Shown here: positions 3,735-35,305 of the stretch, one piece after another
Position numbering within the stretch: the first letter of the stretch is position 1
Layout of the letters: the number at the start of each line of letters is the position of its first letter
From: a virus
Length of the DNA: 40,083 nt
Strand: one strand, 5' to 3'
Virus record (IMG/VR): IMGVR_UViG_3300032093_000322
Coordinates: 1 to 40,083 of that record
The notes under the pieces: generated by a model
Told to the model about the DNA's origin: nothing
Database searches by the model: none
The model's input: the letters and a program-made list of their open reading frames with translations, nothing else
Made by a program: the position numbers and the translations under genes

Positions 3735-3754
3735 TATTATTTCTCCAAATAACA

Positions 3755-4205: not shown

Positions 4206-4214
4206 TTTTATTTC

Positions 4215-7649: not shown

Positions 7650-7650
7650 G

Positions 7651-7725: not shown

Positions 7726-7727
7726 AT

Positions 7728-9571: not shown

Positions 9572-9572
9572 G

Positions 9573-10830: not shown

Positions 10831-10837
10831 TATTCAC

Positions 10838-11122: not shown

Positions 11123-11131
11123 TTATGTCTC

Positions 11132-11395: not shown

Positions 11396-11403
11396 ATATT
11401 CTC

Positions 11404-11646: not shown

Positions 11647-11660
11647 AGCTTCCTCCAAAT

Positions 11661-11693
11661 AAAAACTGCACCATGCAATATAACATGGTGCAG
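11661..11693 (-). terminator. Rho-independent terminator after leader protein B
   Basis: Minus strand: CTGCACCATG, 8-nt loop, CATGGTGCAG, then TTTTTATTT. The 10-bp perfect stem and T tract lie 23 nt past the stop at 11717. The loop contains a -10-like TATATT (see promoter at 11677-11705). Confidence 0.85.
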
Positions 11694-11705
11694 TAATGTT
11701 GTAAA
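11677..11705 (-). promoter_or_regulatory. Sigma-70-like promoter nested in the terminator hairpin
   Basis: Minus strand TTTACA (11700-11705), 17-nt spacer, TATATT (11677-11682). Each box matches consensus at 5 of 6. The -10 lies in the hairpin loop, so a transcript starting about 7 nt on would begin in the right arm and could not form the terminator. It would express the 11646 gene and those after it. Inferred from sequence only. Confidence 0.55.
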
Positions 11706-11716
11706 GAAAAAATTAT

Positions 11717-12988
11717 TTATTTTTCTTCATCTGATATTTCTGAATCATCAAATTTGTCAGATTTTTTACCTAAAATAGATCTTAAAGATTTATTAAAATC
11801 ACTTAATTTATCATCTTCTGGTTCTGTTTCGGGCTTATCTATTTCTGGTGGCTCACCAGATGTTCTTTTAACAAATTCATCTTTACTGATTTTTTCAGTT
11901 TTCATGCTATTTTTAGAAAACTTTAAAGTTACAGTTTTAGGTTTTTGTTGTAATAATAAAGAATTTATAGCTTTATTGGTTTCTTCGGTCTTTTGAGAAC
12001 TAGTACCGTCTTTTTTAAATTCATCAAAACCTAAATCATTATAGGTAAAATAAGTTGCTGAAGCATCTATAATTTCATACTCTTCTGGATTGTCTTTAGA
12101 TGGTCTAGTAATACCTGTAATTATTAAAGATACAGGTACAAAACCATGATAATATCTTTCTTTTTTGATCTCTAATTTATCATCAACTATTTTTGATAAC
12201 TTTAAAGTTTTTTTATAATTATCAATACTTTCATTATAACTTTTTATAGCTTTTGGACTATCACCGTACTTTGTATCTCTTTCCCATTCTAAATGCTCAA
12301 TATATCTTTTAAAATCATCAAGATCATAGGAGTTTATATATTTTTGTTTATATTGTTCTGATTCTGCGCCAATTTTAAATCTCCAAAAAGCTCTTAAGAA
12401 AACTGATGGGTCATAATCTGTTAATTTTCTTGCTCTTTTTTCTGAATCGTATCTACCAGTTTTTATGGTACCTATATCTGGCTGCATTACTGGCGGCATC
12501 GGTACTGTTCTTTGTCCATATTCATCTTTATATTTATCTATTTCGTACCTTGGATCACCACCAGAACCTATTGTTGTACCATAATATTCATACTGTAATC
12601 CCGTTAAACCATTTAATTCAGGAACCATATCAATTATATTCTTTAAATAAGAATACATTACTCCTCTACTGTTGCCTCCATCTCCTATATTTACAACTTT
12701 TCTTGCAGCGGCAGTAAAGCGTTCCTCTTCTAATGTAGATTTATTAGAATCAAAATGGGTAACGGCACTAATAAATTCTTTTATCTGATCCGGGGTAAGA
12801 TTATATTCTCGTAATGTGCTGTTTTCTTGCTCATCGTCTAAAAGATAATAAAAGGTAATAGATTTATCTATTGGCTTTGGTTTAGCTTTAGGTTTAATTT
12901 TAGTAGGTGGTTTTTTTGGTGGTCCTTGAAGCTCTTTTATCAATTCTTCTAAAATTATTTTTTTTAAATATGATTTATGGATTTTCAT
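11717..12988 (-). CDS. Leader-bearing protein B (MKIxK...IIxEEL N-terminus)
   Basis: 423 residues. The N-terminus MKIHKSYLKKIILEELIKEL shares the leader of proteins A and C. It is followed by a Pro/Lys linker (residues 23-42) and a long body (about 45-360) with mixed helices and strands, then an acidic C-terminus ending DDSEISDEEK. No known domain or catalytic motif is apparent. It lies 21 nt after leader protein C and ends at a strong terminator, so the two form a two-gene late-type unit headed by the motif at 13766-13775. Leader cleavage after I12-L-E14 or I17-K-E19 is possible by analogy with T4 prohead protease sites. Function unknown. Confidence 0.7.
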   Translation of the reverse strand: MKIHKSYLKKIILEELIKELQGPPKKPPTKIKPKAKPKPIDKSITFYYLLDDEQENSTLREYNLTPDQIKEFISAVTHFDSNKSTLEEERFTAAARKVVNIGDGGNSRGVMYSYLKNIIDMVPELNGLTGLQYEYYGTTIGSGGDPRYEIDKYKDEYGQRTVPMPPVMQPDIGTIKTGRYDSEKRARKLTDYDPSVFLRAFWRFKIGAESEQYKQKYINSYDLDDFKRYIEHLEWERDTKYGDSPKAIKSYNESIDNYKKTLKLSKIVDDKLEIKKERYYHGFVPVSLIITGITRPSKDNPEEYEIIDASATYFTYNDLGFDEFKKDGTSSQKTEETNKAINSLLLQQKPKTVTLKFSKNSMKTEKISKDEFVKRTSGEPPEIDKPETEPEDDKLSDFNKSLRSILGKKSDKFDDSEISDEEK

Positions 12989-13009
12989 TATTTTTCTGAA
13001 GTTTATAAA

Positions 13010-13732
13010 CTATTCCGGTAATGCTAAAGAAGCAACTTTATTCTTTACAGCACCTTTTTTATAATCTGATATTAATATAGCCATTTTAGTTAATTGAAAT
13101 CCAAAATTTTCAGCATCTATCATAATTTGATCAGTTTGTTTAAGTTGTGATACATAAGAGGCATCTGAGCGAGCCATAAAACTTCCGGGTTGTACATATT
13201 TTTCATCTGCTGGTAGTTGTTCATCAAACTCATTCTTACCTGATTTATCGAAATTAGTAAATCTAGAGATATTAGCTTTTATTTTTTGTTTAATATCATT
13301 AATATCGATTTTTTTATCTTTATACATATTTTCAATTACTTTTTCAAATTCTGGTTTGTCCATGTTTTCTAAAACAGACTCAACAACATCTAGACCATAT
13401 GGTATGCTCATATATTCGTCTTTTTGACCGGGATAAACATATGCCCTATTAATACCACCTCGCGGTTTTAATCTAACAGATAAAGCGGTTTTAGCACTTG
13501 CAAATCGATCTCTTGCAGCTTCTTTTTGTCTCTCTCTTTCTTCTTCAGCGCTTTTTTCGGCAGCTATTTCTTCCTTTGATTTACCGGGTACAGGAACAAG
13601 TTTAGGAGCATTTGGATCTACGTATTCTGGCTCGGGGTCATCCAAGTAAGGAAGAGGAGCACCATATTCTTTAACTACTCGTTTTAATTCTTCATTAATA
13701 ACTTTATTTAAAAACTTTTTTGAAATTTTCAT
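13010..13732 (-). CDS. Leader-bearing protein C (MKIxK...VIxEEL N-terminus)
   Basis: 240 residues from the ATG at 13732, 6 nt after GGAG; an upstream in-frame TTG lies inside that site and was rejected. The leader MKISKKFLNKVINEELKRVV matches proteins A and B at M-K-I-x-K, L8, I12, E14-E15-L16. A Pro/Asp-rich linker follows (residues 23-60), then a Lys/Glu-rich helix (KSKEEIAAEKSAEEERERQ) and a mixed domain. First gene of the B/C unit. Its promoter-like motif lies inside a 13-bp hairpin after the RNR gene. Unknown function; a late, head-associated protein is the best inference. Confidence 0.7.
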   Translation of the reverse strand: MKISKKFLNKVINEELKRVVKEYGAPLPYLDDPEPEYVDPNAPKLVPVPGKSKEEIAAEKSAEEERERQKEAARDRFASAKTALSVRLKPRGGINRAYVYPGQKDEYMSIPYGLDVVESVLENMDKPEFEKVIENMYKDKKIDINDIKQKIKANISRFTNFDKSGKNEFDEQLPADEKYVQPGSFMARSDASYVSQLKQTDQIMIDAENFGFQLTKMAILISDYKKGAVKNKVASLALPE

Positions 13733-13750
13733 ATTTTTCTCCAATAAAAT

Positions 13751-13783
13751 GCCTAAAATACTAATATAAATAGTATTTTAGGC
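13751..13783 (-). terminator. Hairpin after the RNR gene, terminator-like
   Basis: A perfect 13-bp inverted repeat, GCCTAAAATACTA / TAGTATTTTAGGC with a 7-nt loop, lies 19 nt after the RNR stop. On the minus strand ATTTTATT follows. The stem is AT-rich and the T tract imperfect, so strength is uncertain. It holds the late-type motif in its left arm and loop. Confidence 0.6.
13766..13775 (-). promoter_or_regulatory. Candidate late promoter motif TACTATTTAT, inside a hairpin
   Basis: Exact copy of the 10-mer. Five bases are in the left arm of the 13751-13783 hairpin and five in its loop, 33 nt before the ATG of leader protein C. A transcript starting just downstream would lack the left arm, as in the nested promoters at 11677-11705 and 20301-20330. 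Confidence 0.55.
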
Positions 13784-13802
13784 AAGTAAAAACAAATATT
13801 TT

Positions 13803-15665
13803 TTATTTAATTGGACAAGCGCCGCCTTCACATTCAAGTGAACTTAATAAATCACCATCTCCTACACCATTATCAATATTAATTGGTTTAATTTTAGCAG
13901 ATAGTTTTTCATATTGTTCTTTGCTGATTTTTTCTTTTGGTGCTTGTTTAAAACCATGTTCGCTGTGACAAAGAAAAGAAATGGTCTTAAGATATTTAAG
14001 ATTATCTTTTAACCAAGTTTTTAATTCTTCAAGTTCACTTTGCTTATAATATACAGTTACAGATACAGCTTGGTCTGCCCAGTGTTTTTGTGCCATTTTA
14101 ACAACATCTAATTGTTTCCACGTAGTCCAATCTTCATCAGCTACAGGCGCGTTTTCTGGTGCGGCTACATAGAAATCTACAACTTGTGTATTATGGTCTA
14201 ATGTGCCATCAAAACGGATTGTTGGTTCCATATAATGACCGGCTTCACGTAATAATGGCAACAGGGGATCGCTACCAGCAAAACGTACACGCTGAATAAT
14301 ATAGCGTGAGTACGCTGGATGTACGCCTTCATAACAATCCATTACTTTGCTAATAGTGCCACTTGGTTTGATAACTGTAGTGCGAATACTTTCTGGGATA
14401 TTTAATTCCTTAGAATATTCTATATTTTCTTTTTGTATTGCCGCATAAGCGCGGTCAAGTGATTCTGGGTTAAATAGATCACTCTGTAGGCAACCAGTAA
14501 TACCAGTACCAATTCTGCGATTACGTTTAACAACAGCATCACATTTTGGTTGGTGATATTTTTCCATTGTTACGCGTTTACCCCAACGATGCATAAGTTT
14601 AGCAGCTTCTATAAATTCTTCTTCGTTTAATAGATTTGGTAGAGCAATTTCTTGAAGATTGCAAGGCTCACCATCTTCTAGTGTAGCTTCAGCGCAAGGA
14701 TTTACACCAATAGCACTATCTGCTTTTAATTCACCCATACGAGCAAATTTCTGGATATTCTTACGATTTACAATACCAAATGGCTCACCTTGTTCATAGG
14801 TTTTCCAAAATAGTGGATGCAAATCTTCTACATCGTCTACAACAACAGAATAATTTGCCATCGCACGTTGAGTAGGAATATTACCTAAATCCCAACGTTT
14901 AGCCTTTAAGTATTCCTTATCCCAAGGATCACCAAGAATAATAATAGCTGAACGACGAACGTTACCAGCTACAACCATTTCTCCAATTGAACAAAGAATA
15001 TCTGCTGCATCTACTGGACGTAAATGTTTGCCTTCACGGGATTTTAAAATAGCTACTAGTTTATCAACATAAGAAATTAAAGGTTTTGGACCGCTTGATG
15101 TTCCGCCGAACCCTTGGATCGGTTCACCAGCAGCACGAATACAAACCGTAGAATAAGAAAAGGATTTACCAGTAACAAAATATGATTCTAATACACGACG
15201 AGTTAATTCATTCCAACCTTCACGGGAGTCTGGAACAATAAAATCGGCATCTTTGCTATCTCTGTTTAAGATAGAAACATCTTTTTTTAATTTTGGTAGT
15301 TTACTGACAAAGCGATGTTCAACGCTCATGCCTACACCACCACCAAGCATTAGCAAATCCTGTGCTAATACAAAGTTATTCCATTCATCACTAGCTACAA
15401 ACCAACAATTGTTAAGAGCAACACCACCAAGTTTTTTATGACTTGGAGCGCCGCTATACCACCAACCACGCCCTGCTGGTCCAGCTTTACGATTAAGTAA
15501 ATAATAACGCAAACGCTCTATTTCTTTTGCTGATACATTATGTCCCTGAACATTACCAGATATAACACGCTCCACAGTATCATTCCAATTTTCAAGAACA
15601 CCAGTATCTTTACGAGCATACGTGCGTTTATAAACAACTTTTGCAAGGTTGGACCAGTTAGACAT
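13803..15665 (-). CDS. nrdJ: Class II (adenosylcobalamin-dependent) ribonucleotide reductase, monomeric type
   Basis: 620 residues, shorter than Lactobacillus RTPR (about 739). Its N-terminus (RTYARKDTGVLENWNDTV) resembles that monomeric triphosphate-reductase group. Active-site residues: C87 in NNCWF and C335 in EPCNLQEI as the redox pair, and the radical cysteine and glutamate in NPCAEATLEDG (C324, E326). The C-terminal CEGGAC (C612, C617) is the swinging dithiol that passes electrons from thioredoxin, encoded next door. Class II enzymes need vitamin B12 coenzyme but no oxygen or small subunit, and none is encoded here. It makes deoxynucleotides for phage DNA. The mature length argues that no intein or intron is present. 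Confidence 0.93.
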   Translation of the reverse strand: MSNWSNLAKVVYKRTYARKDTGVLENWNDTVERVISGNVQGHNVSAKEIERLRYYLLNRKAGPAGRGWWYSGAPSHKKLGGVALNNCWFVASDEWNNFVLAQDLLMLGGGVGMSVEHRFVSKLPKLKKDVSILNRDSKDADFIVPDSREGWNELTRRVLESYFVTGKSFSYSTVCIRAAGEPIQGFGGTSSGPKPLISYVDKLVAILKSREGKHLRPVDAADILCSIGEMVVAGNVRRSAIIILGDPWDKEYLKAKRWDLGNIPTQRAMANYSVVVDDVEDLHPLFWKTYEQGEPFGIVNRKNIQKFARMGELKADSAIGVNPCAEATLEDGEPCNLQEIALPNLLNEEEFIEAAKLMHRWGKRVTMEKYHQPKCDAVVKRNRRIGTGITGCLQSDLFNPESLDRAYAAIQKENIEYSKELNIPESIRTTVIKPSGTISKVMDCYEGVHPAYSRYIIQRVRFAGSDPLLPLLREAGHYMEPTIRFDGTLDHNTQVVDFYVAAPENAPVADEDWTTWKQLDVVKMAQKHWADQAVSVTVYYKQSELEELKTWLKDNLKYLKTISFLCHSEHGFKQAPKEKISKEQYEKLSAKIKPINIDNGVGDGDLLSSLECEGGACPIK

Positions 15666-15678
15666 TTTATATTACTCC

Positions 15679-15933
15679 CTATTGGTTAATAAATGTTTTT
15701 AAACGTTCTGCTGTAGCTCCACCGCTTATACGTGCTACTTCTTGATTATCTTTAAGTAGTACAAAAGTTGGAACAGCGCGAATATTATATTCTTCTGCTA
15801 CGTGCGCTTGTTCATCAACATCTACTAACTCATATTGTACTCCATTTGCGCTTTCTTTTAGAGTGTTAAAAACTGGCTTTGTGCGTTGACATGGAGCACA
15901 CCAAGTAGCTGAAAACATTATGATTTTTTTCAT
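15679..15933 (-). CDS. Thioredoxin
   Basis: 84 residues, a minimal thioredoxin fold. The active site is W-C-A-P-C (SATWCAPCQRTKPVF), and the cis-Pro comes in IRAVPTFVLLKDN. It is shorter than E. coli Trx (108), lacking the first strand/helix, as is common in phage versions. It lies 13 nt upstream of the class II RNR and is probably its reductant. The WCAPC motif is more glutaredoxin/short-Trx-like than the usual WCGPC. Confidence 0.93.
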   Translation of the reverse strand: MKKIIMFSATWCAPCQRTKPVFNTLKESANGVQYELVDVDEQAHVAEEYNIRAVPTFVLLKDNQEVARISGGATAERLKTFINQ

Positions 15934-15936
15934 ATT

Positions 15937-16239
15937 TTATTCCTTTTTATTTGGCACTTCTATGTGCCCTATTTTAGCATTTTTGTATAATGGATTCTTA
16001 ACGGCAAATTCTGCGGCAGTTTTTCCAATACTAAATTGGAAACCAAGAAATTTGGTACGATACCAATCAGTAAGCATATTTAATGCATTAAAAAATACTA
16101 ATCCAAATATCGGAGGATGCACTTTAATGTATTTTTTTACTGGTTTTTCTGTGCCTGCCAGAACAGCATCTTTTGATCCTGTTACTATTAATCTTTTTTG
16201 ATATCCAAATAATTTAAAAATAAAATCTATAGCTTTCAT
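15937..16239 (-). CDS. Hypothetical protein
   Basis: 100 residues from the ATG at 16239, which has AAGGA 7 nt upstream; an earlier in-frame ATG lies within the previous gene. It starts MKAIDFIFKLFGYQKRLIV, has one mildly hydrophobic stretch (HPPIFGLVFFNALNML) and ends with basic residues. No family recognised. It is 3 nt upstream of thioredoxin. Confidence 0.6.
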   Translation of the reverse strand: MKAIDFIFKLFGYQKRLIVTGSKDAVLAGTEKPVKKYIKVHPPIFGLVFFNALNMLTDWYRTKFLGFQFSIGKTAAEFAVKNPLYKNAKIGHIEVPNKKE

Positions 16240-16255
16240 TTTATATCCTTTCTTA

Positions 16256-16480
16256 TTAATCATTATCTTCAACAAAATGTGACATTATAAATCCAAAAAA
16301 CCCAATAGTTAAAGTAAGAGGAATAAATAATAATATTCCTTCTCTACTGTTTAAAATAAATTTTTTAGAACTTTCCATTTCTGGTTTTGTTGGTAAATAT
16401 AAATATCTTAACATCCTAAGAAATAGAAAAAAATTAAAGCATATATAAGTTGCAGCTAATGTATTTAATAAAATTTTCAT
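16256..16480 (-). CDS. Small membrane protein, two predicted transmembrane segments
   Basis: 74 residues. Hydrophobic segments at about 4-24 (LLNTLAATYICFNFFLFL) and 49-66 (ILLFIPLTLTIGFFGFIM) are separated by a charged loop (PTKPEMESSKK). ATG overlaps the helicase stop (ATGA). Likely an inner-membrane protein; function unknown. Confidence 0.6.
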   Translation of the reverse strand: MKILLNTLAATYICFNFFLFLRMLRYLYLPTKPEMESSKKFILNSREGILLFIPLTLTIGFFGFIMSHFVEDND

Positions 16481-17862
16481 GATGCTTTTTTCTCCTTCTT
16501 ATAATTTTTATATTTCTGCTTTAAACTCTCTTCTTGTTTTTTAGTAGCTTTCTCAATAATTTCTGTAGCAGTTTCTGCACTTTGAGAAAGTACCTTTATT
16601 TTAACATTACTTGTGTCCATAAATATAGGGAAAACTAATCCATCAGGGCCATTTCTATTTTTAGCTACAAATAATCTACCTTCGTTCATATTTTTATCTT
16701 TAATTGTTCTTGAGATAGTAAATATGAAATCAGCTACAAAGCATTTATTGAATGCTTCGGAAATACTTTCCATAGTGATTACTTCTGCATTTAATCCACT
16801 GCGGTTTGTTTGAGAAGCTGTCCAGAGTGTGCATTGATATACCTGTGCTAATCCACGCAATTCTTCATAGATGCTCTCAAGCTCAATCCGTTTCTCCTTT
16901 TGGGCGCTTATAGGTCTAATTAGATCGCCATAGTCTACAATTACCATATCAATACGAAAATCTTTGCGTTTTAGTTTTTCGAGATGGTGTTTGATGGTGT
17001 TAGTAGAGGCGGATTTAGTAGGATATTCTTTAATAATAAGCTTGCCCTTTACATCTTTGACGCCTTCCCAAACTATTTGCTTTTGATCTTTAACTTCTGC
17101 TAATTGGATACCTGTAATACAGGAATCATAACGCAGTGCAACAACCTTATCTTGAAGTTCTAAAGTGTAGTGGACTACATTTAATCCAGCTTGAAGTGCC
17201 ATAGCGCCAAGATGGACCAATGCCATACTTTTACCGGCACCAGTAGGAGCAATAACTACTCCTAATTCACCGCGCCCAAGTCCACCTTTAGAAATATTAT
17301 CAATTAATTCCCAACCAGTAGAAATTGGATTACGTGCTTTCAACTCAAAGCGTTTCTCAAAGTCAAGAATAAAATCATAGCCATGATTATTATCCGTTCC
17401 AAGCTTAAGAGCATCGTTAATGATTTTAGAGATTTCATCATAAGAAGAGTTTTGTATTAATCCTACGCTTTTAATCATAGCTTCTTTTAATTTCTGTTTC
17501 TTGCAGAAATCAAGAGAAATATCTTTTATATGCTGTTCACCTTCAACAGAAAACTCATTTGCACTAATTCTAGCATAATAGTCGCGTATTTGTTTTTGTA
17601 ATAGCTCATTTTCCTTATCTAAGTCTGTACGAAGAATAGTTGTAATTGTATCGCGGGTTGGATGCGTGCCATACTTTTTACGATAATCAAATATCTTTTC
17701 AACAAATACACGTAAGTATTTTAATTCAAGAAAATTAATATCTAGTACTTCACTAACTTGATCAGCAAATGCGCGATCATCAAGAATAAGCTGAACAAGA
17801 TTTTCTTGAAACTTTGTACCATATCTCTCAAATGTCGGTGCTTCATTTAAAAACTGGCTCAT
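16477..17862 (-). CDS. DnaB/gp41-type replicative DNA helicase
   Basis: 461 residues, the DnaB size. The N-terminal helical domain (1-170) is followed by a RecA-like ATPase. Walker A is APTGAGKS (205-212) after the DnaB-type sequence STGWELIDN. Walker B is in DMVIVDYGDLI, and later motifs include WTASQTNRSG (sensor Gln) and FIFTISRTIKDKNM with the arginine-finger region. The C-terminus is a Lys/Glu-rich helix. It unwinds DNA at the fork, hexameric, 5'-3'. No primase or helicase loader is seen in the window. Its stop overlaps the membrane protein gene. Confidence 0.93.
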   Translation of the reverse strand: MSQFLNEAPTFERYGTKFQENLVQLILDDRAFADQVSEVLDINFLELKYLRVFVEKIFDYRKKYGTHPTRDTITTILRTDLDKENELLQKQIRDYYARISANEFSVEGEQHIKDISLDFCKKQKLKEAMIKSVGLIQNSSYDEISKIINDALKLGTDNNHGYDFILDFEKRFELKARNPISTGWELIDNISKGGLGRGELGVVIAPTGAGKSMALVHLGAMALQAGLNVVHYTLELQDKVVALRYDSCITGIQLAEVKDQKQIVWEGVKDVKGKLIIKEYPTKSASTNTIKHHLEKLKRKDFRIDMVIVDYGDLIRPISAQKEKRIELESIYEELRGLAQVYQCTLWTASQTNRSGLNAEVITMESISEAFNKCFVADFIFTISRTIKDKNMNEGRLFVAKNRNGPDGLVFPIFMDTSNVKIKVLSQSAETATEIIEKATKKQEESLKQKYKNYKKEKKAS

Positions 17863-17863
17863 A

Positions 17864-18829
17864 TTAGCAATTCTCCAAAACTATTCTGTGCATATAGGCA
17901 AACAACTCCTCTAGATTAACTTCTCCAAAACCATCTTTCAACATCATTTTAATGATTTCGGTTTTATTAAATGTACATTCACTATTTTCTAATGTGTAAT
18001 TAATTTTTTGTACATCTTGTATAGAAACATTTGGTATTGCTAATTGCATAATTTTATAATTGTCAATTATTTGTTGTTCTGAATCAACAATACTCTGGTA
18101 TATTTTAATTTGTGATTCGCTGTTCCTACAATAATTTATTACATCATTAATCATTAGATTTTTTTGTTCTTTTAATATAGGAATTCTTTTAGCAATTGTT
18201 GGTATACCAGCACCTTGAACGCCGTCAATATTATCACTTTTATCACCAGAAATGGCTCGTACCAAACAGAAATTAGAAGGATGAATTCCATACTGTTCTA
18301 TAATTCTATTCGTATTAAGTACTTCTTCTTTAACTGGTCTATAAAGGATTGTATCATCATTACATAACTGTATAAAGTCCTTATCATTAGAAACAATAAT
18401 TTTGTTATATTTTTGAATAGTAGCATGCTGCACAATCACTGAGATTAGATCATCGGCTTCTACACTATCTAGAAGCAATTGTATAACCGGCATATTGTTT
18501 AAATATTCTGCCAATCTAGTCATCTGCCATATCTTATTTTTTAATTCTTGATTTTCGTCAAGCAATTGTACATTTCTATTAAGACGCAATGGCTTACGAC
18601 CATTCTTATAATTTTTATTCATTAATCTACGTTTAGTAGAACCACCTTTACCATCCCAACAAATAACAACTCTATTTGGATTAATAAATTTACAAAGCTT
18701 TTGTAAGCTTTTAATAAAACCTAAAACACCACCAATAGGATTACCATTGGTGGCGATGGAAGGATTAACTGTATAATTTCTTAAATACAAATTATTTGCA
18801 TCTATAACTAATACTTTTTTCTTATCCAT
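17864..18829 (-). CDS. 5'-3' exonuclease / flap endonuclease (T4 RNase H and PolI N-terminal family)
   Basis: 321 residues. The acidic metal-binding motifs of the FEN family are present: D10 in VLVIDANNLYLRN, WDGKGGSTKRR (the arch region start), SVEADDLI, VSNDKDFIQL and AISGDKSDNIDGVQGAG (the helix-hairpin-helix DNA-binding part). It removes RNA primers from lagging-strand fragments. In many phages it is separate from the polymerase, as here. It lies 1 nt from the helicase and shares its transcript. Confidence 0.93.
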   Translation of the reverse strand: MDKKKVLVIDANNLYLRNYTVNPSIATNGNPIGGVLGFIKSLQKLCKFINPNRVVICWDGKGGSTKRRLMNKNYKNGRKPLRLNRNVQLLDENQELKNKIWQMTRLAEYLNNMPVIQLLLDSVEADDLISVIVQHATIQKYNKIIVSNDKDFIQLCNDDTILYRPVKEEVLNTNRIIEQYGIHPSNFCLVRAISGDKSDNIDGVQGAGIPTIAKRIPILKEQKNLMINDVINYCRNSESQIKIYQSIVDSEQQIIDNYKIMQLAIPNVSIQDVQKINYTLENSECTFNKTEIIKMMLKDGFGEVNLEELFAYMHRIVLENC

Positions 18830-18836
18830 TTAATCC

Positions 18837-19199
18837 TCAAAACTTATAAGTACCAATAACCTCATTATCAACAGTATAATAAACCTTACGAATACCACGT
18901 TCTTCCATAACCGCATGACACATAGCGCAAGGCTTACTCATGCGAGCGTCTTCGCCATTCTTTGAGCATCGTGCGACATACATAACAGAACCTTTTGTTA
19001 TATGTCTAGGAATATTCAAGATCGCCTTGATCTCGGCATGGTACGTTGCATTTCCTTTTTCTTCTGGGCGGTAATCCTTTCCAACTGAACAATACCGCTC
19101 TGAATTGATTCCCATGCCAACAATGGCACCACCGCGCACAAGAACCGCACCATGTCTAAAATTACCATAAGTAGAATTTCCAGCGAGTTTTTTAGCCAG
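18837..19199 (-). CDS. Cytidine/deoxycytidylate deaminase family protein with unresolved 5' end
   Basis: The zinc site is clear: H-A-E (TYHAEIKAI) and P-C-A-M-C. The only ordinary start in this frame is a GTG at 19139 (VRGGAIVGMG), which would cut off the first helix and strand of the fold. The same frame runs on upstream as LAKKLAGNSTYGNFRHGAVL, which fits the deaminase N-terminus, to a CTG at 19199 with GGAGG 10 nt before it. The frame stays open a little further, with no ATG, GTG or TTG. The frame +1 to it holds a short ORF with a strong ribosome site (19192-19305). Start at an unusual CTG, a +1 shift from that ORF, or a sequence error are all possible. Likely role: dCMP to dUMP for ThyX. 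Confidence 0.7.
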   Translation of the reverse strand: MAKKLAGNSTYGNFRHGAVLVRGGAIVGMGINSERYCSVGKDYRPEEKGNATYHAEIKAILNIPRHITKGSVMYVARCSKNGEDARMSKPCAMCHAVMEERGIRKVYYTVDNEVIGTYKF

Positions 19200-19305
19200 C
19201 TGGAAGATACCTCCGTACTTTCTTTGATGCTTCTCCTCCCTTCATCTGGCTGTCCTCAATGTTGCTGTGCTTCTTCACATAGCTCGTCGTCGCATCGGTA
19301 TCCAT
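19192..19305 (-). CDS. Short ORF overlapping the deaminase 5' end (probable N-terminus in another frame)
   Basis: 37 residues, starting MDTDATTSYVKKHSNIEDSQ and ending RRYLPAG. It has an excellent AAGGAG site and a consensus sigma-70 promoter just upstream (19331-19359), so it is probably translated. Skipping one base at the AAA-G near its Lys-Lys would continue into YGGIFQLAKK and the deaminase, giving a 155-residue protein of the expected size. Alone it has no recognisable function. Confidence 0.5.
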   Translation of the reverse strand: MDTDATTSYVKKHSNIEDSQMKGGEASKKVRRYLPAG

Positions 19306-19330
19306 ATCTTTCTCCTTTGAAAGTGTAAGC

Positions 19331-19359
19331 ATAATAGTACAACTAAACTGTGATGTCAA
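19331..19359 (-). promoter_or_regulatory. Sigma-70-type promoter
   Basis: Minus strand TTGACA (19354-19359, perfect), 17-nt spacer, TATTAT (19331-19336, 5 of 6). The -35 lies in the last codons of uvsE. It would drive the deaminase, exonuclease and helicase genes, probably early with host RNA polymerase. Confidence 0.65.
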
Positions 19360-20272
19360 ACTGTCTACGCATTTGTAGTACAGCAAGATTTTTCATCTTA
19401 GCCTCAACATCAACATCAATTAGATTATCACGAATAGCTGCCAGCTGTATATCAGGAACATAATGAATAAAATTAGAATGCGCTCTGCGCTCTGTATATG
19501 AACCATTTTCCATTCCCGGTTCAGTATTAGAAAGGTGCTGCAATGGCTTAATCTTACCCCATGTTTTGCTGGTTTCATAAAATGCATCTATGAAAGATAG
19601 ATCATCACTTCCAAAAGTATGGTGATGAGAATCAAGGACAATAGGAATACCGGTTTTTTCATGAACTTGAAGTAGTTGCTTAACATTATAACACCTTTCA
19701 TCATTCTCAAGAGTAAGACGGTTTTTTACGCTTTCTGGAAGCGTTCTAAAGATATCAACAATTTTGCTATTTCTATCTTTTTTGCCACCATGAATATTGA
19801 TTGCATAATAGGGAGTTTTTTCAAAACCCATCATATCAAAAATCCATGCATGATATTCAAGTTCACGAATAGAGTTTTGGATAACCTTATCGCTATCGCT
19901 TGAAATAACAGTAAATTGACCGGGATGACAAGTGACACGAATATTATGCGAATGAAACAAGCCACCAAGATATGCAAGCTTGTTTTTTAGCGATGCATCA
20001 TCTTTTGCAAGATGAGAACAAAACTCAAATAGAGGGAAAAGAGTGCTAGTAAGCCTGAAGGATTTAATATTATTTTCAATTAGTTTTGGAAATATTTGAA
20101 TATGCTGATCTACGTTATTATGATAAGTATCAATAATTCTTTGATCATTGTATTTGCCGTTTTTATAAGCTCCGAGTTGCAGCATTTTTTCATCAATAAG
20201 ATTGATAATTTCTTTATTGCCATTTCTTTTCGTTTTTTCTTCAACCCACTGGCAGCAAATACTAAGACTCAT
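19343..20272 (-). CDS. uvsE: UV DNA damage endonuclease (UvsE/UVDE family)
   Basis: 309 residues from the ATG at 20272, 5 nt after GGAGG; a longer frame reaches into the terminator hairpin and is rejected. The TIM-barrel signatures are present: SFRLTSTLFP, VTCHPGQFTV, YYAINIHGGKKDR, LTLENDERC and PIVLDSHHHTF, which supply His, Glu and Asp ligands for the metal cluster. UVDE nicks 5' to pyrimidine dimers and starts an excision repair path independent of UvrABC. It would protect phage DNA from sunlight. It follows recA, from which it is separated by a terminator with a nested promoter. Confidence 0.95.
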   Translation of the reverse strand: MSLSICCQWVEEKTKRNGNKEIINLIDEKMLQLGAYKNGKYNDQRIIDTYHNNVDQHIQIFPKLIENNIKSFRLTSTLFPLFEFCSHLAKDDASLKNKLAYLGGLFHSHNIRVTCHPGQFTVISSDSDKVIQNSIRELEYHAWIFDMMGFEKTPYYAINIHGGKKDRNSKIVDIFRTLPESVKNRLTLENDERCYNVKQLLQVHEKTGIPIVLDSHHHTFGSDDLSFIDAFYETSKTWGKIKPLQHLSNTEPGMENGSYTERRAHSNFIHYVPDIQLAAIRDNLIDVDVEAKMKNLAVLQMRRQFDITV

Positions 20273-20280
20273 ATAGCCTC

Positions 20281-20317
20281 CAAAAGAAAACCGCTCCAGT
20301 ATTCTACACTGGAGCGG
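20281..20317 (-). terminator. Rho-independent terminator after recA
   Basis: Minus strand CCGCTCCAGT, 7-nt loop, ACTGGAGCGG, then TTTTCTTTT. A 10-bp GC-rich stem lies 19 nt past the recA stop; the T tract overlaps the sequence before the uvsE ribosome site. Confidence 0.88.
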
Positions 20318-20330
20318 CAATATATGTCAA
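20301..20330 (-). promoter_or_regulatory. Sigma-70-type promoter nested in the recA terminator
   Basis: Minus strand TTGACA (20325-20330, perfect), 18-nt spacer, TAGAAT (20301-20306) in the hairpin loop. Transcription would begin in the right arm, so uvsE RNA made from here escapes the terminator that stops recA RNA. The 18-nt spacer is one longer than ideal. Confidence 0.55.
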
Positions 20331-20335
20331 CCGAC

Positions 20336-21481
20336 TTAGTTTAGATTTTCTTCTGCCTCTTCGCCTTCAATATTATAGTAATTCTTTGCATCGCCTTCAC
20401 GGGTATCAAATTTTACAATTACTTCTCGATCCATGATGTCAAGAACTGATTTTTTGAAAGCTTCGTCTTTGCTCATTAGTTCTTCCCAACCGCTTTGTTG
20501 GAATTTCTTTGGCGTACCTGCAACATCTAATTCGTACCATGCGCCCATTTGTTTAATAAACGGTTTAATGGCTTCAAAGATGCTTTCGTTATCCAATACA
20601 CCAACACTTCCGCCCCACATGATTTTGAAAAGACATTCACGACCAGCAGTACCAAAACGAGATTTTTCTAATCTTGCTTTGACTTCACTACCAATCTTAT
20701 AGCCGCGCTCATCAATAACATAGCTATCTTTTGCTTTTCTTCCAGTTAGCCAAACACGCAAGCTATAGGAATAGCTTAATGCTTTACCACCGGGAGTTGT
20801 GTATCTTTCACTATCTGTAGCATACTTAATATTTTGAACCTGTAGATTGGTCTTTAATTGATTTAAAATCAGAAGCGTGCTTTGACTATTGGCAATTGGT
20901 TGAATCAATTTAGATAAACCCTTTGCTAGAATGCGCGGTTTAACTGCCATAGAAGACTGTGGATCAAAATCACCTTCTAGATCTGTTTTACTTGGAGTTA
21001 ATGCCATAGAATCCCAAATAAACAACATTCTATTTTGATTATTCTTTAACAAGTCTTCGATACTTTCCAAAACAAATTCTACGCTTTCTGCTTGTGTATA
21101 AAGAACTTTAGAAATGTCACAACCAGCCTTAGTTAAGAACTCTGGATCGATTGCACTTTCACTATCAAAATAAATAACATCAATACCCATTTTTTGTGCA
21201 TTAGCTGCAATCTGTGCAGCCATGTAGGATTTACCAGAACCTTCCAATCCTGCAAGTTCTGTTACTTTACCTACTGGAATTCCTGCCAACTTTCCACGGC
21301 AGATAATTGAATCAAGCCATCTTGAACCAGTAGAGATCCAATCATTAACTTCTGTTGGATTATCTTCTTGTAAGTCAAAAGAAACTTCACGACCACTTTT
21401 TTTATTTAATAGTTCACGCAATTGATCAATTGATACTTTACCAGCAGATTCTTTTTTATTTTTTCCCGTTGCCATTGACAT
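20336..21481 (-). CDS. recA: RecA-family recombinase
   Basis: 381 residues. Walker A is GLEGSGKS (78-85). Walker B is MLFIWDSMALTPS, and the L2 region is in LLILNQLKTNLQVQNIKY. The TPGGKALSYSYSLRVWL segment is typical of RecA/UvsX, including the conserved G-G-x-A. It binds single-stranded DNA to promote strand exchange and recombination-dependent replication. The C-terminus is acidic (YNIEGEEAEENLN), as in RecA. ATG at 21481 is 5 nt after GGAG. It is next to the SSB gene, from which it is separated by a terminator. Confidence 0.95.
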   Translation of the reverse strand: MSMATGKNKKESAGKVSIDQLRELLNKKSGREVSFDLQEDNPTEVNDWISTGSRWLDSIICRGKLAGIPVGKVTELAGLEGSGKSYMAAQIAANAQKMGIDVIYFDSESAIDPEFLTKAGCDISKVLYTQAESVEFVLESIEDLLKNNQNRMLFIWDSMALTPSKTDLEGDFDPQSSMAVKPRILAKGLSKLIQPIANSQSTLLILNQLKTNLQVQNIKYATDSERYTTPGGKALSYSYSLRVWLTGRKAKDSYVIDERGYKIGSEVKARLEKSRFGTAGRECLFKIMWGGSVGVLDNESIFEAIKPFIKQMGAWYELDVAGTPKKFQQSGWEELMSKDEAFKKSVLDIMDREVIVKFDTREGDAKNYYNIEGEEAEENLN

Positions 21482-30356: not shown

Positions 30357-32996
30357 TTATTCTAATTCCTTACTGCCTCTGTTTACAGAGTCTGCTACTG
30401 TTCTATCTTTTTTATCAATTTTTATATTTTTTGCTATCTCTTTACCATCTAAATATACATTCACTTGTATATTTTGCATACCGCTTTGAGATTTATTGAC
30501 ATTAGCTGCGCCTTGATTAGAAGCAGTTTGAACTGTTTCTTTAATAAATTCTTTTGATATATTTATTTTTTCTGTTGTAACTTTAGAAGCAGATTCAAGT
30601 ACTTTAGAAACAGAATTTATTGTTTCAACAAAGCTTCCAACGTCGCCAGTTGGCAACACCATACTTTGACTTATGGTGCTAATTTGTGCTGAAAAGTCCG
30701 ATATATTCGTATTTGTTTTAAAACCTGCCATAACTGTTGATAATTCTTTTAATCCTGATACTACTCTAGCAATATTTGTTGCCATAGTAACAAATACTTC
30801 ATTAACATTTTGCATATGTACCATGACACCGCCAATATCAGAAAAAAGGTCCATAGCTTCTTTTATATCTGCTTTTTTATCTGCCAATGTTCTTATAGCA
30901 TCAACAAATTTTGCCATACCAGCTGCAGCTAAAAATATACCGGCTCCTAACAACATTGCTCCAGCACCTATCGCCAACAAAACTAAAGAAGCTACATAGC
31001 CGGGTATCGTTAAAGCAGCCATGCCAGCTACAAATAATGCGAAAGTTGCAAGAAACCCAAGTAAATAACCAGAAACTTTAAAAGCTTGATCTCCTAAATT
31101 TTTAAATGCTTCTATCAATAATACTATACCCTTTGCTGCAAGCATTATGCCAGCACCAATACCAAGCGCAGCAAGACCAATTGAAACCATTACAGCAGCC
31201 AACGCTAATAAAACTATAGTCGCTATTACTAAACCAACGGCAACTTCTGGTGCAGCCGCAGCAGTACCAATAATCTTTAAACCTGCGGCAAAAGCTGTAC
31301 TAACTGTTGTTATTGTTGCAGCCAAACCAGCGCTTGCAACAGTACTCTGACCTGCAAAAGTTAAAAGACTTGTACCAGCTGTAATTATTGGAGCTATTAT
31401 AGAAGCAAAAGCTATTCCCATTGTTACAACAACGACAACTATAGCAGCAATTACTCCTATTATACCTCCGCTCATATCATTTAATTCGCTGAATGCGACA
31501 ACCATCTTTTTTACAAATTCTATGGCCGGTTTTAACCCTATAACAATTTTTGAAAAAACATTTTCTAATTGTTTACCTATTTCAGCTGCTTGTGTCATAG
31601 CTTCATTTAACTTTGCTTGAGTGGCTTCAGTCTTCATCTGTTCAATACGCATATCGCTAGTAGATGAATTAAAGTATCTAGCAGCATCACCAGCGTTTTT
31701 AAAACCTAGTGTTTGTGCGATACTTTTTTGTGTAGCGCGATCTAAATCTTCAAATTGTTTTCCAGATAAATCAAAACCTTGCTTTATCAAATCTATTCTT
31801 TCTTCTTCGGATGCTTGTACAAGTTCAAGAGAATTTAGATAGTTACCTCCTAACATAGAATTTAAAACTGCGGTTTTTTGTGCAGCGTTTTCAAAAGTGT
31901 CAAAACCTTCTGCTATAGATACTAAGTCATTTATTGACATACCAAGAGATTTTGCTTGCTTTTCTAAGCTATAAAATACATCAAGCGCTCTTTTACCGTT
32001 TGCAGCTAATAGTGGCATAACAGAAGAAAAATCTTTAATCATGGCTGCTGGTGCCATGCCGATTCCCTGTGCTGTTTTAGCCATCGTTTCTAATGTTGCA
32101 GATGCATCTTGACCAGCAATATTTAAAGTCTTAGTAAAGATATCAAAAACAGCACCAGATTCTGCAGCACTAACATTTAAATTCTCAAATTTAGCAGCGG
32201 TAGCCGATAATTGACTTTGTACTTGCGGTGTTTGATTAGTAAAACTAGCCATACTACCTACTAAAGCACCAGTAGATTTAGTTAAATCAGCGATTCCAAT
32301 GCCATATTGACTTAAATTCTGAACAGCACTGGCGTCTACCATGTCTTGCGCCAACATACCAGTTGTTCTAGCAAATTGTTCATTTGCACTAACTATACTA
32401 AGTAATTGACCTTTAATATTTGAATATATACCAGATAAAGTAAATGTTTTAACAATTTGACTGTTTAAAATATCATTTACAAATGAACGTCCAACTTGAG
32501 AAATTTCTTCTTGAGCTTTTTTTTGCAACAAAAGATTATCAAGATTTTTTTTAAGTTCTTTTAATTTATTTTTTTCTGTTTCTACTTGATTATTAGCATT
32601 TTTTATTATTTCTTCTTGCGCTACTATTTCTTCACTTGTAGAAGCATATCCTTGATCTTCTAATTCTTTTTTTCTTTTCAATGCCGCTTCCATAATCGGC
32701 ATTTGTTCACTAGAAATTTTTGTTAAATTTCCTAATTGCTCATTAATTTTGTTATTTGTTTCTGCTATTTGCTGTTTTGTTTTAGCAAAAGCAGAAATAG
32801 TTAACTCTAACTCTCCATTTATATTACGATATAAACCAGCAGTATTACCAAGAGATTGATTAATTTTTTCATTTTCAGATAAATTTAATGAATTTAATTC
32901 AAGAATCTCTTTAATAATTTTTTTTGTTTTTTCTGCTTGCTCATTTGAAGCAGCTGCAGCATTTGGATCTACGGTGGTTGGAGTCGTTGGAGCCAT
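30357..32996 (-). CDS. Tail tape measure protein
   Basis: 879 residues. The N-terminal half is helical and coiled-coil (residues 15-165, Lys/Glu/Gln-rich; then long amphipathic helices). The central part (about 530-700) has several long Ala/Gly/Ile/Val/Leu segments, for example ISVAAIVVVVVTMGIAF-like and GLAALGIGAGIMLAAKGIVL, typical of tape measure proteins that cross the host membrane. The length would set tail length. It follows the gp26-like chaperone and a terminator, with its own near-match late motif (33018-33027). The C-terminus ends in NRGSKELE. Confidence 0.92.
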   Translation of the reverse strand: MAPTTPTTVDPNAAAASNEQAEKTKKIIKEILELNSLNLSENEKINQSLGNTAGLYRNINGELELTISAFAKTKQQIAETNNKINEQLGNLTKISSEQMPIMEAALKRKKELEDQGYASTSEEIVAQEEIIKNANNQVETEKNKLKELKKNLDNLLLQKKAQEEISQVGRSFVNDILNSQIVKTFTLSGIYSNIKGQLLSIVSANEQFARTTGMLAQDMVDASAVQNLSQYGIGIADLTKSTGALVGSMASFTNQTPQVQSQLSATAAKFENLNVSAAESGAVFDIFTKTLNIAGQDASATLETMAKTAQGIGMAPAAMIKDFSSVMPLLAANGKRALDVFYSLEKQAKSLGMSINDLVSIAEGFDTFENAAQKTAVLNSMLGGNYLNSLELVQASEEERIDLIKQGFDLSGKQFEDLDRATQKSIAQTLGFKNAGDAARYFNSSTSDMRIEQMKTEATQAKLNEAMTQAAEIGKQLENVFSKIVIGLKPAIEFVKKMVVAFSELNDMSGGIIGVIAAIVVVVVTMGIAFASIIAPIITAGTSLLTFAGQSTVASAGLAATITTVSTAFAAGLKIIGTAAAAPEVAVGLVIATIVLLALAAVMVSIGLAALGIGAGIMLAAKGIVLLIEAFKNLGDQAFKVSGYLLGFLATFALFVAGMAALTIPGYVASLVLLAIGAGAMLLGAGIFLAAAGMAKFVDAIRTLADKKADIKEAMDLFSDIGGVMVHMQNVNEVFVTMATNIARVVSGLKELSTVMAGFKTNTNISDFSAQISTISQSMVLPTGDVGSFVETINSVSKVLESASKVTTEKINISKEFIKETVQTASNQGAANVNKSQSGMQNIQVNVYLDGKEIAKNIKIDKKDRTVADSVNRGSKELE

Positions 32997-33030: not shown

Positions 33031-33060
33031 AAAAAAAAAGTGAGCAGCATAGCTGCTCAC
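33031..33060 (-). terminator. Rho-independent terminator between the chaperone and tape measure genes
   Basis: Minus strand GTGAGCAGC, 3-nt loop, GCTGCTCAC, then nine T. A 9-bp stem, 4 nt past the stop of the out-of-frame extension at 33065, which supports that extension being the true end of the gene. Confidence 0.9.
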
Positions 33061-33064
33061 CTAG

Positions 33065-33247
33065 TTATTTTCTTGAAGCTTTTTTTATTTCATCCGATTC
33101 TTTTTTAAGTTGATCGGTTAGTTTTTCAACAAACCACTTTCTTAAACCAACTGGTAAATTGTAGCTTTCAAAAAGACTAAAGCCGCCATAATATTTAAGA
33201 TAAAAAAATTGTTCATAAATATTTTCTTGGTATTCACTACTTAAACC
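33065..33247 (-). CDS. Out-of-frame C-terminal extension of the gp26-like protein (probable programmed frameshift product)
   Basis: A 60-residue reading frame, beginning GLSSEYQENIYEQFFYLKYY and ending SDEIKKASRK, in the +1 frame relative to the upstream gene. It contains no ATG, GTG or TTG. In this frame an upstream TGA closes the frame just 4 codons before the shift site, so it can hardly be translated independently. The overlap has seven T (33248-33254): GAC TTT TTT T GGT. A +1 slip of tRNA-Phe on TTT keeps perfect pairing and joins D-F-F to G-L-S-S. The joined protein would be 345 residues. This arrangement, just before the tape measure gene, is that of phage tail assembly chaperones (G/GT). 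A -2 shift or transcript slippage would give the same frame. Confidence 0.75.
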   Translation of the reverse strand, partial: GLSSEYQENIYEQFFYLKYYGGFSLFESYNLPVGLRKWFVEKLTDQLKKESDEIKKASRK

Positions 33248-34103
33248 AAAAAAAGTCTGCTGTCAGCGGAACCTCCATCTCGGTGGAATATTCACATTTA
33301 GAACAAGTAAATGTATGATTTAAATCAACATTTGGAATAGTTTTTTGATATGTATTTCTTAGAAATTTAGCATCAACAGCAGGCATAGCATCAATTGCTT
33401 TATTTATTATATCTCTATCAATAAGCCCTTGAATACTAACGATCATTAGCTTTAATTGATCTAATAGAATGCTATCGTTAGTGTTATTTAGTTTCTTTTT
33501 ATTTTCTGATATTCTTATCAATTCTTTTTCATCATAACCATTTAATGCTCTGCAGACAACATTCCATTTTGTATTTGGAAGATCAAAAGAAAAAGTTCCA
33601 TTATCACTAATGTTTGCAACAACAGCTGTTTCTTCAGAAATTATTTTTTCTAGTTTTTCATTTAAATCAAATGAGTTTTTAACTTTTTCATAACACGATG
33701 GGCACGTAACTTGAGTTACATATATATTTCCATAAGCAGATATTCTTGCAGCTACAAGAATAGCATTTCTATCTTCTGTAGTTAAAGTATCTGAATTAAT
33801 ATTTTTATCTAAAACTAGTGATTGTATAAGTTTATCTAATACAACACCTTTTTTTAACAAATTACGAGAAGAAAGTATGTCTTCCTCCTTAGCTGTCATC
33901 TGTTTTATTTCTATACTATCCTTTCTATGCAATGGATGATGTTGAGGATAAAACATACCCTTTGAAGGTAGCAAAACAACCTCTGTTGGATTCATAAATT
34001 CCAATGGAGCTATTTTGTGTCCTTCAGAATTAATTGATTGTTGTAGGGGATTTGAATCTTGTTTTAATGGATTAGTACCCAATCTGTCTTCATTATTTCT
34101 CAT
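33237..34103 (-). CDS. T4 gp26-like baseplate/tail assembly chaperone, zinc-binding
   Basis: 288 residues ending in ADFFWFK. The N-terminus (about 30-95) includes PTEVVLLPSKGMFYP and IKQMTAKEEDILSS, segments typical of the gp26-type family. Two CxxC pairs (C134/C137 in TCPSCYE and C267/C270 in TCSKCEY) probably bind one zinc. In T4 gp26 helps build the baseplate hub. In tail-gene order this position, between tube and tape measure, belongs to the assembly chaperone, and its end overlaps the frame-shifted extension. Some of the chains would end at 33237 and others would be longer. Confidence 0.8.
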   Translation of the reverse strand: MRNNEDRLGTNPLKQDSNPLQQSINSEGHKIAPLEFMNPTEVVLLPSKGMFYPQHHPLHRKDSIEIKQMTAKEEDILSSRNLLKKGVVLDKLIQSLVLDKNINSDTLTTEDRNAILVAARISAYGNIYVTQVTCPSCYEKVKNSFDLNEKLEKIISEETAVVANISDNGTFSFDLPNTKWNVVCRALNGYDEKELIRISENKKKLNNTNDSILLDQLKLMIVSIQGLIDRDIINKAIDAMPAVDAKFLRNTYQKTIPNVDLNHTFTCSKCEYSTEMEVPLTADFFWFK

Positions 34104-34123: not shown

Positions 34124-34681
34124 TTATATATCTTTATTAACTACAGTAGCATAATCATATGTTATTGTTAATGATACATCTACGAATTCATCACTAGCAT
34201 AATCTAGTTTACCATAATCTATGTTAGAAATAAAAGGATTAATTAAAGACCAAGTTTCTAAAATATTACCATTTTCATCAATTTGTATTAATTCTAATTT
34301 AGAACCAAAAGGTAAAGATGAAAAAGTTTTTGATAAACCGGGATTTAATATTTCTGATGTTTCTCCAGCCTGTGGTTGATTATTGGGCTGATAACCTCCA
34401 ACAGCAATTATTAAGTTTTGTAATACACTAGATAGAGATAAATTACCCTTTCTACTAACCACAGAAGCAAATTTAACGTTTATTGGTTTCCACTTTAAAA
34501 TACCGGGATATTTATGAACGTTATTTAATAATGTATGCTCGGTAACATTAATATCAAAGGATGGTTTATCGCATGATTTAAGCGCAAATTGCGATGAATC
34601 TAAACCATTATCAGTAAAATTAATGTACCACCTATACTGTCTTAATGGTTCAGGTAAAAAACTATTATTCCAAAAAGACAT
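34124..34681 (-). CDS. Tail tube-like protein, paralog 2
   Basis: 185 residues. It starts MSFWNNSFLPEPLRQYRWYI and shares pattern with the next gene upstream (FW-N, EPLRQ[YF]RWY). It has the beta-rich core of tube proteins, with a loop at KYPGILKWKPINVKF and late strands in YDYATVVNKDI. It may be a tube-initiator or terminator relative of the main tube protein. It lies 12 nt after its paralog. Confidence 0.85.
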   Translation of the reverse strand: MSFWNNSFLPEPLRQYRWYINFTDNGLDSSQFALKSCDKPSFDINVTEHTLLNNVHKYPGILKWKPINVKFASVVSRKGNLSLSSVLQNLIIAVGGYQPNNQPQAGETSEILNPGLSKTFSSLPFGSKLELIQIDENGNILETWSLINPFISNIDYGKLDYASDEFVDVSLTITYDYATVVNKDI

Positions 34682-34693
34682 ATTTAACCATTA

Positions 34694-35305
34694 TTAGTTT
34701 GATGTAGGTTCGGCTACTTCATCTAAACTAGCGCCGGGAGAAGTGCCATTACCATCTGCGGAGCTTTGTTTTAATTGAGCGCTATCATATCTAATGGTAC
34801 ATTGAATATCCACTATTTCTTCGCTTGCATAGTCAAGAGCACCAAACTGTACGCTAGTAAAGAATGGTTTTTTTAGAAGCCATTCTTCAATTGGCTTACC
34901 ATCAGAGCTAATCTGAATTATGGATATAGTATCACCAAGCGCTTTATTAAATTTTGGTTTACTAATGGTTCTATCCTCGCTATAGCTTGCTGGATATTGA
35001 TAACCTGCGCCCAATAAAACATTATATAAAACATCATCTACAGATGGCTTAAGAGTAGCAGCAATTGTCATATTAATGCTTTCCCACTCAAGACGACCGG
35101 GATAGTAATAAAAATGATTAAGGTATTTATGAGTTATTTCTGCAACTTTTGCTTTTGGTTTGTCAACCTTTTTTAATGCATATCTAACACTATCAATTGA
35201 ACTGTTATTAGATGTAGATACTGGACCACCGGCAGTATTGCCACCGAATACCATATACCATCTAAACTGTCTTAAAGGTTCTGCACCTGTATTCCAAAAA
35301 CCCAT
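34694..35305 (-). CDS. Tail tube protein, T4 gp19-like, paralog 1
   Basis: 203 residues. It starts MGFWNTGAEPLRQFRWYMVF. The beta-rich body (YYPGRLEWESINMTIAAT, FFTSVQFGALDYASEEIVDI) matches T4-type tail tube proteins, which stack as hexameric rings inside the sheath. A disordered Ser/Asn/Gly-rich C-terminus (DGNGTSPGASLDEVAEP) distinguishes it from paralog 2. Located just after the sheath gene, as is common for the main tube. A near-match late motif precedes it. Confidence 0.88.
   Translation of the reverse strand: MGFWNTGAEPLRQFRWYMVFGGNTAGGPVSTSNNSSIDSVRYALKKVDKPKAKVAEITHKYLNHFYYYPGRLEWESINMTIAATLKPSVDDVLYNVLLGAGYQYPASYSEDRTISKPKFNKALGDTISIIQISSDGKPIEEWLLKKPFFTSVQFGALDYASEEIVDIQCTIRYDSAQLKQSSADGNGTSPGASLDEVAEPTSN

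What the first reader, a model, noticed from the sequence alone, without database searches (positions are those of the whole stretch)
33065..34103. Candidate programmed +1 (or -2) frameshift in the tail assembly chaperone
Seen: the gp26-like frame ends TTT TTT TGG TTT AAG TAG. A second 60-codon frame in +1 overlaps it, has no ATG/GTG/TTG, is closed by TGA four codons before the T7 run, and ends right before a terminator. Known: phage tail assembly chaperones before the tape measure gene often use frameshifts, mostly -1. Inference: the T7 run lets tRNA-Phe slip +1 with perfect pairing, giving a 345-residue fusion. A +1/-2 event in a T4-related gp26-like gene is unusual.
Basis: partly seen in the sequence, partly recalled or inferred. 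Interest (0 to 1): 0.85.

Follow-up and report, generated by a model that had tools for sequence, protein, structure and literature searches.

The report
+1 frameshift makes phage tail chaperone
In a large group of T4-related phages, a conserved slippery site (TTT or CTT followed by TGG) very probably makes some ribosomes skip one base, so that one gene yields both a short and a long form of a protein that helps build the phage tail; relatives make the same long protein by slipping the other way, or from a second gene copy.

Summary
The minus-strand gene 34103-33237 (288 aa, Pfam T4_baseplate, gp26/gp51 family) ends GAC TTT TTT TGG TTT AAG TAG, and a start-less +1 ORF follows, to 33065. In this 32% GC window T7 runs are common, so the run alone proves nothing; homologs do. 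171 viral loci (118 non-redundant clusters) all have the second part in +1, never in frame or in -1, and all 118 carry YTT_TGG. Variants TTC_TTT_TGG, TTT_CTT_TGG and TTC_CTT_TGG break the T run: they exclude transcriptional slippage as the shared mechanism and argue against -2, leaving a +1 slip of the P-site tRNA from YUU to UUU, as in prfB CUU_U but with sense codon UGG next. Synonymous codons upstream are strongly constrained (GGAGGU...CCG...GAC), with no RNA fold. The tail is homologous to cyanophage gp51 and, through it, to the C-terminus of T4 gp51. Most cyanophage and jumbo-phage relatives checked carry the pair in -1 behind a canonical T_TTT_TTY; T4 has two separate genes. That T4-like gp26/gp51 are tail assembly chaperones was already published (Vladimirov 2022, known to me only through citing papers). 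Apparently new: the conserved +1 version and the direction switch. No protein-level proof.

The parts
33237..34103 (-). Tail assembly chaperone, short form (TAC-N; gp26-like, 288 aa), including stop TAG 33239-33237
   Evidence: PF12322 E 1e-15; phrog_150 E 1.3e-14; Foldseek to T4-like baseplate hub proteins
33255..33276 (-). Conserved upstream RNA-level element GGAGGTTCCGCTGACAGCAGAC (SD-like GGAGGT at 33276-33271, 19 nt before the P-site codon; last base never T in homologs)
   Evidence: synonymous bias GAG 99/102 (exp 28), CCG 92/118 (exp 11), GAC 88/88 (exp 26); base before the two slip-region codons 0/118 T (exp 67)
33246..33251 (-). Slip site TTT_TGG: P-site TTT 33251-33249 slips to 33250-33248; zero-frame A-site TGG 33248-33246; +1 A-site codon GGT 33247-33245
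   Evidence: YTT_TGG in 118/118 clusters; T run 33254-33248
33065..33253 (-). +1-frame tail (gp51 tail; 62 aa FFGLSS...SRK, stop TAA 33067-33065), long form TAC-NC = 345 aa fusion
   Evidence: three helices, pLDDT 93; top BFVD match Gp51 of P-HM1
33031..33062 (-). Intrinsic terminator after the chaperone gene
   Evidence: a hairpin plus T run also follows the tail in homologs (read from the sequences)
30357..32996 (-). Tape measure protein gene directly downstream (879 aa)
   Evidence: phrog_167 E 6.8e-10
34124..34681 (-). Tail tube protein (gp19-like) directly upstream
   Evidence: phrog_4542 E 7.7e-22

Best explanation
[quoted passage not shown] Most ribosomes make the 288-aa short form. A fraction, while the P-site tRNA sits on UUU (CUU in some relatives) and Trp codon UGG waits in the A site, lets the P-site tRNA slip one base forward to UUU; decoding resumes at GGU in the +1 frame and adds the gp51 tail, giving a 345-aa long form. 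By analogy with lambda G/GT, the short form would coat the tape measure protein and the tail would recruit tail tube subunits in a fixed ratio. Shown here: layout, conservation, coding in +1, slip-site pattern, upstream synonymous constraint, homology of the tail with gp51. Inferred: that slippage happens, its rate, the slow UGG step, the stimulating role of the upstream element, and the chaperone action.
For: Layout: +1 in 169/169 loci with both parts and 118/118 clusters; 58/58 distinct scored loci of the immuto clade have +1 as the longest downstream frame. Bracket: in the tightest cases the +1 frame opens only 5 nt before the slip codon, and the zero-frame stop lies 12-15 nt after its first base in 117 of 118. 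Slip pattern: TTT TTT TGG 98, TTC TTT TGG 13, TTT CTT TGG 5, TTC CTT TGG 2; third base of the P-site codon always T while the codon before it may end in C. The base before the two codons is never T: 0/118 (exp 67) and 0/47 (exp 22), which would prevent U_UUU_UUU. Synonymous constraint in codons -8 to -2 but not consistently in -24 to -9. The tail is under +1-frame protein selection. prfB precedent: CTTT, and TTTTTGA read by tRNA-Phe in 21 genomes (PMC12421855). Position between tail tube and tape measure. Tail homologous to gp51.
Against: No peptide or reporter data. The SD-like motif is 19 nt from the P-site codon, against 3 nt in prfB, and the immuto clade has other G-rich tracts, so the stimulator is unexplained. 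UGG is a sense codon and nothing here shows it is decoded slowly. Exceptions to YTT_TGG in the immuto clade: TTT CTA TGG (3) and TTT CTT TAC (1) of 47, and uncultured LR756508 with TTT CTA TTC. Many homologs (not the window) have possible start codons in the +1 frame.
Confidence: 0.9

Rival explanations
1. A -2 ribosomal shift (as in phage Mu) rather than +1 joins the frames, adding one more residue.
For: Reaches the same frame; with TTT TTT T a -2 re-pairing is also perfect (sequence); -2 is used by phage Mu (PMC5009743).
Against: 15/118 clusters have TTC before the slip codon, so -2 lands on TCT or TCC; the A-site Trp tRNA could not re-pair either.
Confidence: 0.04
2. RNA polymerase slippage on the T7 run changes the message by one base.
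For: A T7 run is present in 98/118 clusters; the +1 frame could be reached by a one-base loss or two-base gain.
Against: 20/118 clusters and 28/47 of the immuto clade have the run broken by C and keep the layout; the window holds 49 runs of 7 or more.
Confidence: 0.03
3. The tail is a separate gene, started by translational coupling after the zero-frame stop.
For: Annotators treat it so in Mel-JY01 and in cyanophages; some -1 relatives have TAATG overlaps.
Against: The window's +1 ORF has no ATG/GTG/TTG, and 33/118 clusters have none up to codon 12 after the slip; the slip-site and synonymous constraints would be unexplained.
Confidence: 0.05
4. The second frame is an assembly error or a broken gene.
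For: Homopolymer at the junction; a single metagenomic contig.
Against: Same layout in 171 loci from many assemblies and in isolates Mel-JY01, immuto and RM378.
Confidence: 0.005

Closest known systems
gp26/gp51 tail assembly chaperones of T4-like phages (PF12322; Vladimirov et al. 2022, Virology 566:9, seen only through citing papers PMC10885494 and PMC12846349)
   Same: Same N-terminal family and a tail homologous to cyanophage gp51, which itself matches the T4 gp51 C-terminus (hhalign probabilities 95% and 96%)
   Different: T4 makes the two forms from two genes; here one gene and a +1 shift
Cyanophage and RaK2/Atu-like jumbo phage gp26-gp51 pairs with -1 layout
   Same: Homologous hub part; [quoted passage not shown]
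   Different: Direction is -1, in most at a canonical T_TTT_TTC/T heptamer; no YTT_TGG
Bacterial prfB (RF2) programmed +1 frameshift
   Same: P-site YUU slips to UUU (CUU_U; rarely poly-T with tRNA-Phe, PMC12421855)
   Different: prfB has a UGA stop in the A site and AGGGGG 3 nt upstream; here sense codon UGG, and GGAGGU 19 nt upstream
Lambda G/GT and other phage tail chaperone frameshifts (-1, -2 in Mu, very likely +1 in HSTV-2; PMC5009743)
   Same: Position before the tape measure gene, short and long forms
   Different: Direction and slip sequence; no detectable fold match to a solved chaperone (HK97 chaperone 2ob9 only at E 4.2)

Membership tests
Phage tail assembly chaperone (TAC-N / TAC-NC) | Gene lies between tail tube and tape measure genes | tested here: met
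   gp19-like tube gene upstream, tape measure downstream
Phage tail assembly chaperone (TAC-N / TAC-NC) | Short and frame-shifted long form from overlapping ORFs | tested here: met
   by comparative genomics only; no protein evidence
Phage tail assembly chaperone (TAC-N / TAC-NC) | Homology to a recognised chaperone | tested here: met
   PF12322, the T4 gp26/gp51 family; tail matches gp51 through cyanophages
Phage tail assembly chaperone (TAC-N / TAC-NC) | Binds tape measure and tail tube; absent from the virion; fixed ratio | not testable with these tools
   needs biochemistry
Programmed +1 ribosomal frameshift | Conserved P-site codon able to re-pair one base forward | tested here: met
   YTT followed by T in 118/118 clusters
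prfB-type +1 frameshift | Stop codon UGA in the A site | tested here: not met
   TGG in 118/118 clusters
prfB-type +1 frameshift | SD-like tract 3 nt upstream of the slip codon | tested here: not met
   GGAGGT at -25 to -20; GGG codons at -10 and -4 in the immuto clade
Mu-type -2 frameshift | P-site tRNA re-pairs two bases back | tested here: not met
   TCT/TCC landing in 15/118 clusters
-1 frameshift of cyanophage-type gp26/gp51 | X_XXY_YYZ heptamer and tail in -1 | tested here: not met
   tail in +1, never T at -4
Transcriptional slippage | Conserved long homopolymer | tested here: not met
   run broken in 20/118 clusters

The most novel reading that the evidence does not exclude
A distinct class of programmed +1 frameshift: it works at a sense codon (YUU_UGG) without stop codon, short SD spacing or RNA fold, is stimulated by a linear 5' mRNA element lying in the ribosome's exit channel, and arose within one homologous chaperone gene whose relatives shift -1 at nearly the same place, with the loss of one U before the two Phe codons (no U_UUU_UUY) as the hinge between directions.
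Probability: 0.4. Interest if true: 0.75.

Novelty: new variant of a known kind. Interest (0 to 1): 0.63.

Why it matters
One homologous gene pair (gp26/gp51) is expressed three ways in T4-related phages: +1 shift, -1 shift, or separate genes. That makes it a natural experiment on how frameshift direction evolves and on how the dose of a tail chaperone is set. It gives bacterial +1 frameshifting at a sense codon a large natural sequence set, with a conserved 5' element to dissect. It also corrects annotations: the tail is missing, shortened or split off in isolates such as immuto and Mel-JY01, and in cyanophages the gp51 regarded as 'reduced' (PMC3037559) is probably the far end of a shifted protein.

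Tried and rejected
Direct hhalign of the +1 tail with the T4 gp51 C-terminus: not significant; the link runs through cyanophage gp51. RNA structure: RNAalifold on 44 sequences gave no pairs, so a pseudoknot or hairpin stimulator is not supported, and a prfB-like SD spacing does not fit. PDB fold search of the N part: nothing significant. Bacterial genome scan with the tail: no relatives, so no host clue; no tRNA genes in the window. The SP-15/LIS04/GXN1 group also has its tail in +1, but with another junction (TTT/TTC then nCC CGA TTY); not pursued. Two early paper searches failed on term rules.

Full report
What is there. On the minus strand, 34103-33237 encodes 288 aa of the T4_baseplate family (PF12322 E 1e-15; phrog_150). 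It lies between a gp19-like tail tube gene and the tape measure gene. The frame ends GAC TTT TTT TGG TTT AAG TAG, and a +1 frame without ATG/GTG/TTG continues to 33065, directly before a terminator. Skipping one base gives 345 residues. T runs are common in this 32% GC window (49 of 7 or more), so conservation had to decide.

Conservation. Fourteen close viral loci, then 160 locus rows from profile scans (some the same contigs) were examined. In 169 loci with both parts the tail is in +1 every time. With isolates Mel-JY01 and immuto added, 171 loci fall into 118 non-redundant clusters, and every one has YTT_TGG: TTT TTT TGG 98, TTC TTT TGG 13, TTT CTT TGG 5, TTC CTT TGG 2. The tail evolves as protein in +1 (65% of differences at third positions). 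Rhodothermus phage RM378 also has TTT TTT TGG and a +1 tail.

Direction and mechanism. The invariant bases are the third base of the P-site codon and the TGG; the preceding codon may be TTC and the P-site codon CTT. A forward slip of YUU to UUU is possible in all 118; a -2 landing mispairs in the 15 clusters with TTC; polymerase slippage lacks a run in 20. Hence ribosomal +1. PMC12421855 describes the same slip in prfB (CTTT, and poly-T with tRNA-Phe in 21 genomes), but there with UGA and an SD tract 3 nt away.

Upstream element. Codons -8 to -2 show strong synonymous choice: GAG 99/102 (28 expected), CCG 92/118 (11), GAC 88/88 (26), plus G-ending Val, Thr and Ala codons; codons -24 to -9 do not. 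The core GGAGG occurs at -25 in 93/118 clusters, of 138 GGAGG in all these genes. In the immuto clade GGG is preferred at codons -10 (25/33, 2 expected) and -4 (29/45, 2.6 expected). No fold is predicted. The base before the two codons is never T in either clade (0/118, 67 expected; 0/47, 22 expected), which removes the U_UUU_UUY heptamer. I infer protection against -1 slippage; clusters with CTT as second codon would not need that, so the inference is incomplete. These counts treat clusters as independent, and shared ancestry inflates them; the unbiased neighbouring codons serve as control.

What the tail is. The AlphaFold model (three helices, pLDDT 93) has as top BFVD match Gp51 of Prochlorococcus phage P-HM1 (TM 0.74/0.85, E 0.096). 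Profile comparison gives 95.4% (p 1.9e-8) between the +1 tail and cyanophage gp51, and 96.0% (p 4.7e-9) between cyanophage gp51 and the T4 gp51 C-terminus; these are single pairwise comparisons. T4 gp26 and gp51 both match PF12322, and gp51 extends to the end of phrog_150 where gp26 stops. So T4 gp51 looks like the fused form and gp26 the short form, encoded apart. In cyanophages S-RS29, C48C1, P-RSM4, S-SKS1 and Syn1, and in DLP6, PhiW-14, Aeromonas phage 65, Vibrio K566 and CBB, the gp51 ORF is in -1 behind an in-frame T_TTT_TTC/T; the same holds in 121Q, PA5oct, Atu_ph07 and relatives. RHph_N34 has T_TTT_TTG and K441 no heptamer.

Against the literature. PMC3037559 (2010) noted that cyanophage gp51 is only about 20% as long as elsewhere, yet similar at the C-terminus. 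PMC3004832 called T4 gp51 essential and of unknown function. Vladimirov et al. 2022 identified T4-like chaperone genes; I could not read it. [quoted passage not shown] So the chaperone identity, the two-gene solution and probably -1 cases are known. I found no report of the +1 version or its 5' element in the papers held. PMC5009743 lists -1, -2 and +1 among tail chaperones, with +1 very likely in archaeal virus HSTV-2, so +1 as such is not unprecedented.

Limits. Everything is comparative; efficiency, the role of UGG and the function of the element are inferred.

Noticed in passing
window 2955-3755, 11717-12988, 13010-13744 (-): Three otherwise different proteins share a similar N-terminal peptide (MKINKAYLKDIIKEELNKVL, MKIHKSYLKKIILEELIKEL, MKISKKFLNKVINEELKRVV), perhaps a targeting or packaging signal.
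   Followed up: no
window 1508-21481 (-): T4-like tail genes sit with replication and nucleotide genes of other types: DNA polymerase III alpha, RecA, DnaB-type helicase, IMP dehydrogenase/GMP reductase, ThyX, B12-type ribonucleotide reductase.
   Followed up: partly
L179, L180, L181 (Listeria LIS04, Streptococcus GXN1, Bacillus SP-15): The homologous tail is also in +1 but behind another junction (TTT/TTC nnn nCC CGA TTY), a possible second kind of +1 site.
   Followed up: partly
L186, L183, L185, L198, L282-L284, L286-L299: gp26/gp51 pairs in -1, mostly behind T_TTT_TTC/T; in several the annotated gp51 start is an internal Met, so the long form is missing from annotations.
   Followed up: partly
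window 34124-35305 (-): Two adjacent ORFs resembling each other lie before the chaperone; the nearer one matches gp19-like tail tube proteins, the farther one was not searched.
   Followed up: no
+1 tail codons 12-14 after the slip (QFF): CAG TTC TTC is preferred over T-rich synonyms (z 6.6 to 9.1), perhaps to avoid a second slippery run.
   Followed up: no
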